Shown here one piece after another: positions 5,921 to 44,747 of a stretch of 64,000 bases of DNA. Origin of the DNA: Brevundimonas sp. M20. Its GTDB lineage: Bacteria; Pseudomonadota; Alphaproteobacteria; Caulobacterales; Caulobacteraceae. The stretch spans positions 3,239,001 through 3,303,000 of the forward strand of contig NZ_CP041243.1 of the NCBI RefSeq assembly GCF_006547065.1, given 5' to 3'. A program made the translations under genes and the position numbers. How positions within the stretch are numbered: the stretch's first letter is position 1; each line of letters opens with the position of its first letter. Below the pieces are notes generated by a model. The model made no database searches. It was given only the letters and a program-made list of their open reading frames with translations, and was not told the DNA's origin.

Positions 5921-6013
5921 AAGTGATTGGTGATTGGTGGTTCGCGGCGTCACGGGTGGTTGTTGTCTTGCCCCTGACCGTGGTCCCGGCCACCCACTAA
6001 TCACCAATCACTT
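5921..6013. repeat. Heptamer-phased inverted repeat A (between convergent genes)
   Basis: Arms at 5921-5940 and 5994-6013 are 20 bases long and match at 19 positions; the single difference would be a G.U wobble in plus-strand RNA. The loop is 53 bases. The left arm contains TGATTGG twice in a row (5924-5930 and 5931-5937), so the arm has a 7-base period. It lies between the PfkB gene (plus) and the Smr gene (minus). No U-tract follows, so it is not a classical terminator, though it may end transcription from both sides. Confidence 0.8.
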
Positions 6014-6035
6014 CCCGGCACACTGCCGGCCGTCT

Positions 6036-6620
6036 CTAGCTCCGGCGAAGCGTCACATACAGCGCCCCGTCGCCGCCGTGGTGGCGCGCGGCCGGGGCGA
6101 AGCCTGACACCACCGTCCGCAGTCCCGGCGCGGCCAGCCATTCGTGCACCGAGGCGCGGATGACGCCCGTACCGCCGCGACGGCCCTGCCCGGTCACCAC
6201 CAGCACCGAGCGATAGCCCCGCGCCTGCGCCCCCATCAGAAAGGCCGTCAGGGCGTCCTGGGCCTGAAAGCGGCCATAACCGTGCAGATCAATCTTCGCC
6301 TCGATCGGATCGCGTTCGCGCGACAGCCGGCGCTTGCGGCGCGGCTCCAACTCCTCGGGCGCGCCCCGACCACGGGACGGCGACGCGGGCGCGGGCTCCG
6401 CGAAAACCGGAAGGGCGGCGGGCCGCGGTCTGGCGACCTTGGGCGGCGTCTTGCTCATGCCTTTCGGCAGGCCCTTCGAAACCGGAACAGTCTGCGGATC
6501 GACTTCGGCCATGCCCGGCGTCACGCGCAACGCCTTCTTCGCGACCTTCTCCTTCACCGAGCCCGTGACGCGGGCCCAGATGCGGCGGTCATCGGGACTG
6601 AGATCGTCCCGGCGGCTCAT
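6036..6620 (-). CDS. Smr (MutS2 C-terminal-like) domain protein
   Basis: A protein of 194 residues with a disordered, basic, Pro-rich N-terminal half and a C-terminal Smr domain at about residues 105-194. The Smr signatures IDLHGYGRFQAQDAL and VLVVTGQGRRGGTGVIR are complete. Smr domains bind and often nick nucleic acid; stand-alone alphaproteobacterial versions are poorly characterised, and ribosome-collision cleavage is one known Smr role. The ATG chosen at 6620 overlaps the stop of the upstream HTH gene (ATGA). Longer open frame upstream lies inside that gene and is not used. Confidence 0.88.
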   Translation of the reverse strand: MSRRDDLSPDDRRIWARVTGSVKEKVAKKALRVTPGMAEVDPQTVPVSKGLPKGMSKTPPKVARPRPAALPVFAEPAPASPSRGRGAPEELEPRRKRRLSRERDPIEAKIDLHGYGRFQAQDALTAFLMGAQARGYRSVLVVTGQGRRGGTGVIRASVHEWLAAPGLRTVVSGFAPAARHHGGDGALYVTLRRS

Positions 6621-6865
6621 GACGTCCCGTCGAGGTCCTCGTCCGGCGCGGTCTCCTGCGGACCCGGGGTCCAGGCCAGCAGATCGCCCGGCTGGCAGTT
6701 CAGCTCGCGGCACAGGGCGTCCAGGGTGCTGAACCGCACCGCCCGCGCCTTGCCGGTCTTCAGGATCGACAGATTGGCCAAGGTCACGCCCACGCGGTCG
6801 GCGAGCTCCGTCAACGACATGCGCCGTTCGACGAGGATGCGATCAAGCTGGACGCGGATGGCCAT
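6617..6865 (-). CDS. Small XRE-type helix-turn-helix regulator (DUF2975-associated)
   Basis: An 82-residue protein that is almost only a Cro/C1-type HTH (MSLTELADRVGVTLANLSILKTGKARAVRFSTLDALC in four helices; key part ELADRVGVTLANLSILK). The ending CRELNCQPGDLLAW is typical of the YozG-like group that is encoded next to DUF2975 membrane proteins, as here. The ATG at 6865 is preceded by AGAGAG at a suitable distance; a GTG two codons earlier is possible. It probably regulates its own operon, which would include the DUF2975 and Smr genes. Confidence 0.88.
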   Translation of the reverse strand: MAIRVQLDRILVERRMSLTELADRVGVTLANLSILKTGKARAVRFSTLDALCRELNCQPGDLLAWTPGPQETAPDEDLDGTS

Positions 6866-43566: not shown

Positions 43567-44654
43567 CCCAGACGCCCCCTGAAGACGCGCCAACAGACGC
43601 CCAGTCGACCTTCTCCGGCACCCGCGAGGTCGATCCCCGATACGCCCTTGATGAGGCGTCGCTCGGCGTCTGGCTGACGGCGAACGTCGAGGGCTACGCC
43701 GGTCCGCTGACCGTGCGCCAGTTCAAGGGCGGCCAGTCCAATCCGACCTATGAGCTGTCCACGCCCGGCAGGACCTATGTGCTGCGTCGCAAGCCGCCGG
43801 GAACCCTGCTGCCCAGCGCCCATGCGGTGGACCGGGAGTTCACCGTCATCTCGGCCCTGCACGCGCAGGGCTATCCGGTGGCGAAGCCTTGGGCCCTGTG
43901 CACCGACGACGGCGTCATCGGCTCGATGTTCTATGTGATGGACAAGGTCGAGGGCCGGGTCCTGTGGGACCTGAAACTGCCGGGGATGGCGCCTGCCGAG
44001 CGCCGCGCCGTCTATAACGCGCAGGTCGATACGCTGGCGGCCCTGCACCGGTTCGACCCCGCCGCCATCGGGCTGGGCGACTACGGCAAGCCGGGCAACT
44101 ATTTCGAGCGGCAGGTCGGGCGCTGGACCAAACAGTATCGGGCGTCCGAGATCGACCCGATCCCGGCGATGGATCGGCTGATCGACTTCCTGCCCGCCAC
44201 CCTGCCGCCCGAGGGGCCGACCCGGATCGTCCATGGCGACTTCCGCCTCGACAACATGATCCTTGCGCCGGATCAGGCGCAGGTGCGCGCGGTTCTGGAC
44301 TGGGAGCTGTCCACGCTCGGCGATCCGCTGGCCGACTTCTCCTATCTGCTGATCGCCTGGGCCATTCCGGGCTCGTTGCGCAACGGCCTCGCCGGCGCCG
44401 ATCTGAAGGCGCTGGGCATTCCGTCGGTAGAGGAGGTGGTCGCCCGCTATTCGGAGAAGACCGGCGCCCCCGCGCCGTCGAACCTCGACTGGCTGTTCGC
44501 TTACAACCTGTTCCGGCTGGCGGCCATTTGTCAGGGCATCGCCGGGCGGGTCCGCGACGGCACGGCGGCCTCGCCGCAGGCGAAGTCCATGGCCGCACAG
44601 GTTCCGGCGCTGGCCGAAGGGGCGTGGAGCTTCGCGAAGAAGGCGGGGGCCTGA
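43563..44654 (+). CDS. APH-like phosphotransferase (ACAD10/11-type)
   Basis: A 363-residue kinase-fold protein. The Brenner motif HGDFRLDNMIL with catalytic Asp and the DWELSTLGDPLADFSYL motif place it in the aminoglycoside phosphotransferase superfamily, in the group that in animals is fused to acyl-CoA dehydrogenase (ACAD10/11). Alphaproteobacterial members often phosphorylate hydroxyacyl compounds in fatty-acid metabolism. The overlap with glpK (ATGA) suggests a shared operon. It ends at inverted repeat C. Confidence 0.88.
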   Translation: MTQTPPEDAPTDAQSTFSGTREVDPRYALDEASLGVWLTANVEGYAGPLTVRQFKGGQSNPTYELSTPGRTYVLRRKPPGTLLPSAHAVDREFTVISALHAQGYPVAKPWALCTDDGVIGSMFYVMDKVEGRVLWDLKLPGMAPAERRAVYNAQVDTLAALHRFDPAAIGLGDYGKPGNYFERQVGRWTKQYRASEIDPIPAMDRLIDFLPATLPPEGPTRIVHGDFRLDNMILAPDQAQVRAVLDWELSTLGDPLADFSYLLIAWAIPGSLRNGLAGADLKALGIPSVEEVVARYSEKTGAPAPSNLDWLFAYNLFRLAAICQGIAGRVRDGTAASPQAKSMAAQVPALAEGAWSFAKKAGA

Positions 44655-44658
44655 AGAG

Positions 44659-44747
44659 AGGAATTAGGGCGTAAGAATTAGGAGTTAGGGAGGCGCAAAA
44701 CGGATCGCGCCCGCCCCCTAACTCCTAATTCCTACGCCCTAATTCCT
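44659..44747. repeat. Heptamer-phased inverted repeat C (between convergent genes)
   Basis: Arms 44659-44690 and 44716-44747, 32 bases each with one mismatch, loop 25 bases. The left arm reads in 7-base steps: GAATTAG, GGCGTAA, GAATTAG, GAGTTAG. The mismatch would be a G.U pair in minus-strand RNA. The right arm overlaps the stop codon of the CHAT gene. It is the longest of the five and lies between the APH-like and CHAT genes, which converge. Confidence 0.9.

What the first reader, a model, noticed from the sequence alone, without database searches (positions are those of the whole stretch)
5921..44747. A family of intergenic inverted repeats with arms built from 7-bp reiterations, word differing by locus
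Five inverted repeats (A 5921-6013, D 8579-8733, B 31630-31721, E 41973-42042, C 44659-44747) share architecture but not sequence. Arms are 13 to 35 bases and are composed of reiterated seven-base words: TGATTGG, TGGCGAG, TGATTAG, GAATTAG/GAGTTAG and, less regularly, GTGAGGA. Four of the five begin with AAGTG. Arm mismatches in A, C and E are of the type that become G.U pairs in RNA of one strand, as if a fold were being kept. A, B and C sit exactly between convergent gene pairs. I know of no named family that keeps period and geometry while the word changes; a slippage-driven, structure-selected bidirectional terminator is one reading, a mobile or recombinogenic element another.
Basis: seen in the sequence. 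Interest (0 to 1): 0.72.

Follow-up and report, generated by a model that had tools for sequence, protein, structure and literature searches.

The report
Seven-base-unit palindromes at bacterial gene ends
Dozens of hairpin-shaped DNA repeats, built from seven-letter units, sit between genes in Brevundimonas bacteria; their spelling changes from place to place and species to species while the two sides of each hairpin tend to stay matched, which makes them a natural test case for how DNA palindromes are maintained.

Summary
All five inverted repeats exist, and 7-bp periodicity in the arms is far above chance: 99 of 195 inverted repeats in own-genome and relatives' DNA have it, against 120 of 3900 shuffled arms. 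Two corrections. A and B share a homologous, asymmetric core with 13 other sampled loci, so they are copies of one dispersed family. And the G.U argument is empty: every transition mismatch gives G.U on one strand; on the sense strand A.C outnumbers G.U 48 to 24.

What stands out is evolution. Arms of one element match each other better than arms of other elements (0 of 2000 permutations). At one junction 8 of 9 relatives (7 by script) carry heptad palindromes, in at least five word classes, sometimes around the same loop. Genomes differ in word spelling. In one sister pair the loop appears inverted in place.

Best reading: foldback-type intergenic palindromes, favoured behind stop codons, whose arms turn over by 7-nt slippage and are kept complementary by exchange between arms. 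They lack a U-tract, mostly lack quadruplex potential, and the own genome has no REP transposase. Nearest known kind: inverted GGGAATC heptamer repeats of Xanthomonas (Rehm 2015).

The parts
5916..5940 (+). Element A, left arm: CCGGAAA GTGATTG GTGATTG GTGG
5941..5993 (+). Element A core, family 1 (TTCGCGGCGTCACG...GGCCAC), most similar to the cores of own-genome 1732530 and 556512
5994..6018 (-). Element A, right arm (reverse complement CCGGGAA GTGATTG GTGATTA GTGG)
8576..8617 (+). Element D, left array of GTGGCGA, five units; between a Ham1-family gene (rdgB) and a radical SAM/HemN_C gene (hemW), co-directional; gene names by Pfam and recall
8703..8735 (-). Element D, right array, four units; 33 nt perfectly complementary to 8576-8608
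31630..31642 (+). Element B, left arm GTGATTA GTGGTT
31643..31695 (+). Element B core, family 1; best match of the core at the same site in G082, where it lies in the opposite orientation
31696..31721 (-). Element B, right arm (reverse complement GTGATTA GTGGTTA GTGATCA ATGGG)
41973..42042 (.). Element E, inverted repeat with arms GTGAGGA GTGTTGG TGAGCG / GTGAAGA GTGCTAG TGAGCG, between divergent genes (PALP enzyme / FGGY kinase); absent from the short junction of the closest relative G082
44656..44690 (+). Element C, left arm GAGA GGAATTA GGGCGTA AGAATTA GGAGTTA GGG
44716..44750 (-). Element C, right arm; the junction holds a differently spelled heptad array pair in G082 and G012 (by eye), overlapping stops in G070 and 3 bp in G004 and G029

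Best explanation
These are foldback-type intergenic palindromes: two arrays of degenerate 7-nt units (5' arm G-rich, roughly G[GT]NNNN[AG]) in inverted orientation around a loop of about 13 to 118 nt. Shown by sequence: they are dispersed; they lie between genes, usually close behind a stop codon; at least one core family occurs at many unrelated loci; the two arms of an element tend to share words and word order; unit number and words change at fixed positions; genomes differ in word spelling. Inferred: the arms are kept complementary by exchange within the element at the DNA level (hairpin or cruciform template switching, or recombination between the arms, which would also invert the core), while replication slippage in steps of 7 adds and removes units. 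Because slippage preserves unit length, the period persists while the word drifts. Copies spread to new gene ends by an unidentified route, occasionally replacing a resident palindrome. Any effect on mRNA 3' ends is probably secondary.
For: Period 7 only: 99 of 195 inverted repeats, other lags 1-8 each. Dispersal: cores of 15 of 36 own elements link by similarity, one of them by a single weak link; covariance model R1, built from 16 own elements, has 57 matches, both strands counted, in the own genome and matches in 38 of 61 genomes of the genus, own included. Arm matching: 32 GTG array pairs of the own genome, picked without asking for word identity, are 0.78 identical at variable positions within elements against 0.54 between, 0 of 2000 permutations; on the family-1 alignment 25 cells changed on both sides, 0 of 500 shuffles. 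In-place turnover: site 2256880 has heptad palindromes in 7 of 9 anchored relatives by script and 8 by eye; G012, G021 and G032 share a loop while G032's arms read GGTTCTA, GGGGTCA and GGGGCTA with one GGGATTA left; at site D six species share a core 83% identical on average with 4 to 8 left units. Positional persistence: 15 of 34 relative junctions filled where the own junction is filled, 7 of 50 where it is not. Spelling differs between genomes: 2 of 5000 permutations, 61 elements. Core inverted at site B between G000 and G082. No wobble excess on the sense strand.
Against: No exchange event was seen directly; selection on structure could also keep arms matched. The inverted core is one case: after hand trimming the two cores are each other's best match among 14, but by 14.5 to 13.0; before trimming another own core matched B better. 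Site persistence could be repeated insertion at favoured sites. In some own pairs the arms match poorly (1214676 0.50, 2259907 0.38, 398779 0.38, 181065 0.38, 1944889 0.12). Two of five covariation measures are weaker: pairs with a change on both sides 7 of 500 shuffles, further pair types 81 of 500. The own genome is mixed in spelling (82 G, 92 A at the last place) and several relatives give only 1-3 elements. The factor that spreads copies is unknown. The G.U/A.C counts include orthologous elements, so they are not independent.
Confidence: 0.55

Rival explanations
1. RNA hairpins kept by selection: bidirectional terminators or 3'-end stabilisers, with the fold, not the word, under selection.
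For: Very stable predicted hairpins for A-E (-44 to -103 kcal/mol on the + strand); A, B and C lie between convergent genes; 12 of 34 own elements are convergent against 70 of 418 gene pairs; 52 of 62 co-directional elements lie closer to the upstream stop than to the next start; pairs covary.
Against: U-tracts are missing: at least 5 T in 8 in 2 of 102 tails, and no terminator-like site in window 5800-9000 (other parts of the window were not scanned). On the sense strand G.U is rarer than A.C, 24 to 48. At site A 13 of 32 loci have overlapping stop codons and no element. Selection on a fold does not explain a fixed 7-nt period.
Confidence: 0.25
2. Miniature transposable elements (MITE- or REP-like) moved by a transposase that reads the hairpin shape; the heptads are binding units at the element ends.
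For: Dispersed core family, presence or absence at orthologous junctions, two core orientations relative to flanking genes.
Against: The terminal arms, normally the conserved part of a MITE, change in unit number and word while the core stays 83% identical at site D. Y1 transposase (PF01797, REP-type) is in 1 of 37 genomes and not in the own one; no other transposase family was searched. No target duplication could be recognised by eye.
Confidence: 0.13
3. G-quadruplex repeats of the Xanthomonas/Nostoc type, selected for quadruplex formation.
For: Same period, G-rich strand and inverted pairing as GGGAATC repeats (PMC4692102); 14 of 99 elements are of the GGG class.
Against: Only 13 of 99 left arms (with 7 flanking bases) can form a three-tetrad quadruplex and only 29 contain GGG at all; 71 of 99 are GTG-class.
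Confidence: 0.04

Closest known systems
GGGAATC / GGGGA(C/T)T heptamer repeats of Xanthomonas and Nostoc (Rehm et al. 2015, PMC4692102; abstract, first third of Results, the homology section and the Discussion read)
   Same: 7-nt units; mostly intergenic; 70 and 75 inverted pairs in two Xanthomonas genomes, arms on opposite strands in convergent orientation; [quoted passage not shown] near ORF ends.
   Different: There one G-tract word, interpreted as a quadruplex; here mostly GTG words without GGG, several word classes per genome, words replaced at fixed sites, matched word order in both arms, and homologous cores at many loci. No core family or concerted arms were described in the parts I read.
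Foldback transposons (FB, Galileo; search listing and recall)
   Same: Inverted ends made of short tandem subrepeats, variable in length between copies (recalled).
   Different: Eukaryotic, much longer, with related transposase-bearing members (recalled); none identified here.
Coding palindromes of nematomorph mitochondria (PMC6649704, passages read)
   Same: Arms evolve in concert; the authors raise arm conversion or template switching and parasitic persistence.
   Different: Mitochondrial, inside genes; tandem units are not mentioned in the passages read.
REP/BIME elements with RAYT transposases (PMC2817692, listing and start of abstract only)
   Same: Short extragenic palindromes, many copies per genome.
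   Different: No Y1 transposase match in 36 of 37 genomes; variable arms made of heptads.
Integron attC sites (recalled)
   Same: Structure conserved while sequence varies.
   Different: No heptad arrays, tied to integrases; not tested here.

Membership tests
Xanthomonas/Nostoc G-rich heptamer repeats | tandem 7-nt units, intergenic, often as inverted pairs | tested here: met
   period 7; 0 of 35 own elements inside a gene after I dropped by hand one GC-rich repeat (22557) that is, and 1 of 99 in the larger set; inverted pairing is by selection
Xanthomonas/Nostoc G-rich heptamer repeats | G-tract unit GGGNATC / GGGGAYT able to form a quadruplex | tested here: not met
   13 of 99 left arms have three-tetrad potential; the dominant class is GTG (71 of 99)
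REP elements with RAYT | associated Y1 (PF01797) transposase | tested here: not met
   1 of 37 genomes, not the own genome
MITE | dispersed copies with homologous sequence at unrelated loci | tested here: met
   for family 1; C and most other word classes had no core relative among the 36 elements
MITE | conserved terminal inverted repeats and target-site duplication | tested here: inconclusive
   terminal arms are the variable part; no duplication recognised by eye at site A or E, but no near-identical empty site was available
Intrinsic terminator | GC hairpin followed by a U-tract | tested here: not met
   2 of 102 tails; window 5800-9000 only
Rfam RNA family | match at gathering score | tested here: not met
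   0 matches in the window
Foldback transposon | inverted ends built of tandem subrepeats | tested here: met
Foldback transposon | mobilisation by a related autonomous transposase | not tested
   only PF01797 was searched

The most novel reading that the evidence does not exclude
A self-perpetuating class of palindrome in which period, polarity (G-rich arm first) and position are inherited while the sequence is not: each element's arms are rewritten as a pair, so the heritable unit is the 7-nt register itself. It may be imposed by an unrecognised polymerase or recombinase that works in 7-nt steps, the same one behind the Xanthomonas and Nostoc heptamers.
Probability: 0.12. Interest if true: 0.85.

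Novelty: new variant of a known kind. Interest (0 to 1): 0.56.

Why it matters
The elements give replicated natural experiments on how palindromes are kept: dozens of loci per genome, many species, same position, different words. They bear on a long-open question, whether matched arms come from selection on a fold or from copying between arms, and they weaken the quadruplex reading of bacterial heptamer repeats. They may also serve as fast markers: two Xanthomonas papers on tandem-repeat typing hold the string GGGAATC (search listing only).

Tried and rejected
REP/RAYT: no Y1 transposase in 36 of 37 genomes. Quadruplex as general principle: 13 of 99. Intrinsic terminators: no U-tract. Known RNA family: none in Rfam for the window. 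Heptads as all-frame stop signals (7 mod 3 = 1, and many words hold TGA or TAG): 35 of 99 left arms have stops in all three frames and GTGGCGA holds none, so not general. Literature: none of five heptad strings occurs in the held library; searches on Caulobacter/Brevundimonas palindromic repeats listed 20 of 32 and 12 of 26 papers, and no title or abstract start names such a family; PMC2267715 on bacterial stem-loop families has no occurrence of Xanthomonas, Caulobacter, Mesorhizobium, heptamer or tandem. Only open-licence PMC papers are held. The reversed control was useless because the pattern is its own reverse; one search replaced it. The mismatch table adds two tallies under one label, so the totals are used. 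An earlier count said all 9 relatives at site 2256880; the right count is 7 of 9 by script, 8 by eye.

Rows dropped or not used: the inverted repeat at 22557 (lag 7 0.67, inside a gene, GC-rich) was left out by hand; element 2259905 was added by hand; loops under 15 nt and identical copies were left out; of the loci only L151-L154 were used; the non-heptad control is lag 7 under 0.4, not the whole remainder; cores that a pattern did not cut (21746, 3060651, 1683332, one G082 element) and 2256286 are not.

Full report
What is there. The five inverted repeats exist at the stated coordinates (sequences). The window is 3239001-3303000 of a 3.3-Mb single-contig genome; hemW relatives place it in or next to Brevundimonas. 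A is between a PfkB kinase gene and an Smr gene and B between an S9 peptidase and a MarR regulator, both convergent; C is between an APH-family protein and a CHAT-domain protein, convergent; D is between a Ham1-family gene (rdgB) and a HemN_C gene (hemW), co-directional; E is between a PALP enzyme and an FGGY kinase, divergent (short gene names by recall).

Is it more than chance. I scanned 674 kb of the own genome (20 evenly spaced 20-kb stretches, 20 stretches chosen because they hold GTG-heptad hits, and the window) for ungapped inverted repeats. Of 66, 32 have lag-7 identity of at least 0.6 in the arm; other lags from 2 to 13 have 0-3, and lag 14 has 20. With 133 loci from relatives added, loops under 15 nt and identical copies dropped, 99 of 195 inverted repeats pass at lag 7 and 1-8 at any other lag from 2 to 12; shuffled arms pass in 120 of 3900. 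The arms have a fixed polarity: G exceeds C in the 5' arm in 98 of 99, against 27 of 70 inverted repeats with lag-7 identity under 0.4. A paired-arm pattern has 37 hits in the own genome (several per element) and 0 for the reversed control, hits in 24 of 37 genomes of the genus (own included) and in 1 of 24 others of the order, with 0 for the control in all 61. From the evenly sampled part (14 elements in 464 kb) I extrapolate roughly 100 per genome.

One family or several. Comparing loops shows that 15 of 36 own elements, A and B among them, are linked by core similarity in either orientation, one of them (516956) by a single weak link. The core has conserved edges (GTGGTTCGATGCCGC ... GGCCACCCAC) and a variable middle. 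A covariance model from 16 elements, three of them added by eye, has 57 matches in the own genome, both strands counted, and matches in 38 of 61 genomes of the genus, own included; only 63 candidates per genome were scored, so the counts in rich genomes are floors. A second core (GCGGAAGGGCGGCGC) is seen by eye at site D in species sharing that core and at three loci of G027.

Arms evolve together. I picked GTG arrays on one strand and the nearest GTG array on the other strand without asking for word identity. In 32 pairs, identity at the four variable positions is 0.78 within elements and 0.54 between; 0 of 2000 permutations reach it. Pairs with identical word order in both arms are 1732532, 2060786 and 2923077; poor ones are 1214676, 2259907, 398779, 181065 and 1944889. 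On the family-1 alignment 7 of 19 pairs show a change on both sides (7 of 500 shuffles reach this), in 25 cells against a shuffled mean of 10 (0 of 500); the number of further pair types is not unusual (81 of 500).

Sites persist, words do not. At site A, 8 of 32 loci with both flanking genes carry heptad arms (six flagged, two by eye), 13 of 32 have overlapping stop codons, and the rest hold unrelated inverted repeats, other sequence or a few bases. At site D, 10 of 80 loci carry one by the script; many others have a short junction and some hold unrelated inverted repeats. At site C, the closest relative G082 has GGTTTCA/GGTTCTG units, G012 has GGGCTTG-like units, G070 has overlapping stops and two others have 3 bp. 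E is absent from G082's junction. At B, 2 of 12 relatives with both genes (G082 and G025) have heptad elements; the others have unrelated repeats or short junctions. At own-genome site 2256880, 7 of 9 anchored relatives pass the script and one more by eye, with GGGGCTA, GTGATTA, GGGATTA, GGCAGCA, GGTTCTA and GGCATCA words; G082 does not. There G012 and G021 keep GGGATTA/GGGATGA words, while G032, with the same loop, has GGTTCTA, GGGGTCA and GGGGCTA with one GGGATTA left. At site D, six species share a core 83% identical on average while the left arm has 4 to 8 units. Over 24 junctions (84 comparisons), relatives are filled in 15 of 34 cases where the own junction is filled and in 7 of 50 where it is not; two of the 'unfilled' own junctions hold an own array that the script missed, which works against the contrast.

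Dialects and inversion. In GTG-class elements the last letter of the word differs between genomes (G070 42 of 45 A; G012 13 of 15 G, from two elements; G082 29 of 42 G; the own genome is mixed, 82 G and 92 A); permuting genome labels over 61 elements reaches the observed spread in 2 of 5000. At site B the core of G082 lies in the opposite orientation to ours, and after hand trimming the two are each other's best match among 14 cores, by 14.5 to 13.0 from our side. One case is not proof, but inversion is what recombination between inverted arms would produce, and such recombination would also homogenise arms.

Function. Elements avoid genes (0 of 35 own after one GC-rich repeat inside a gene was dropped by hand; 1 of 99 overall). 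In the own genome 12 of 34 are convergent against 70 of 418 gene pairs; 52 of 62 co-directional ones lie nearer to the upstream stop than to the next start. In the larger set, which over-represents a few chosen junctions, 20 are convergent, 62 co-directional and 14 divergent. Gene calls are from a simple codon-usage script, so contexts are approximate. Hairpins are very stable, but U-tracts are missing (2 of 102 tails with at least 5 T in 8; with at least 4, 11 against 7 of 102 controls), and wobble pairs are not favoured on the sense strand (24 G.U against 48 A.C; orthologous elements are counted separately, so I use only the direction). I take the position near stop codons as tolerance or target preference rather than proof of a terminator role.

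Beyond the genus. An AGGG-heptad palindrome pattern has matches in 45 of 398 genomes of the phylum, many with one or two hits that may be chance (the reversed control also scores, up to 7 in one genome). The own genome (21) and a congener (33) are high, and one unnamed alphaproteobacterial genus has hits in 6 of 8 genomes, with units of 7-9 nt by eye.

Known relatives. Rehm et al. [quoted passage not shown] This is the same kind at the level of architecture. The Brevundimonas elements differ in word, in mostly lacking quadruplex potential (13 of 99 could form one), in having shared cores and in replacing words at fixed sites. Concerted arms have a precedent in nematomorph mitochondria, where template switching is proposed (PMC6649704, passages).

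Judgement. The pattern is real and ordered; the mechanism is inferred. I favour DNA-level arm exchange plus 7-nt slippage (0.55) over RNA-level selection (0.25) and shape-reading transposition (0.13). The route by which copies reach new loci is open.

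Noticed in passing
L066:18100-18800 (own genome about 400100-400800): A stretch of about 200 bp (18102-18306) matches more than 20 places in G082, and 18403-18801 matches many places in other relatives: another dispersed repeat family.
   Followed up: no
L211, L293, L180, L184, L186 (junctions of relatives): Long inverted repeats with another internal repetition (GGTTCATCACAACGAACACAACGA..., CACGAAGGACACGAAGG...) occupy the same kinds of junction; the period does not look like 7.
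   Followed up: no
L072, L140, L141, L142, L290, L291, L294, L071 at sites A, B, D: Unrelated inverted repeats (CCCCGCGAAAGCGGGG, GTCATCCCGGG..., CTCCCTCCCC...) fill the same junctions in other species, so these gene ends look like general landing or tolerance sites.
   Followed up: partly
L216 and L222, loops at own-genome site 397472: Loops in G012 and G021 contain TTATCCACA, like a DnaA box consensus (recalled).
   Followed up: no
own genome 2923074-2923259; L207 and L208 in G082: Nested structure: an inner inverted repeat of CGCCCTTCCGC...GCGGAAGGGCG type lies inside the loop of a heptad palindrome.
   Followed up: no
L086, L088, L091, L105, site A: Stop codons of the convergent genes run straight into the first heptad (such as TGAGTG...CACTCA); in L105 the junction is only GTGGCCACTAGCCAC.
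   Followed up: partly
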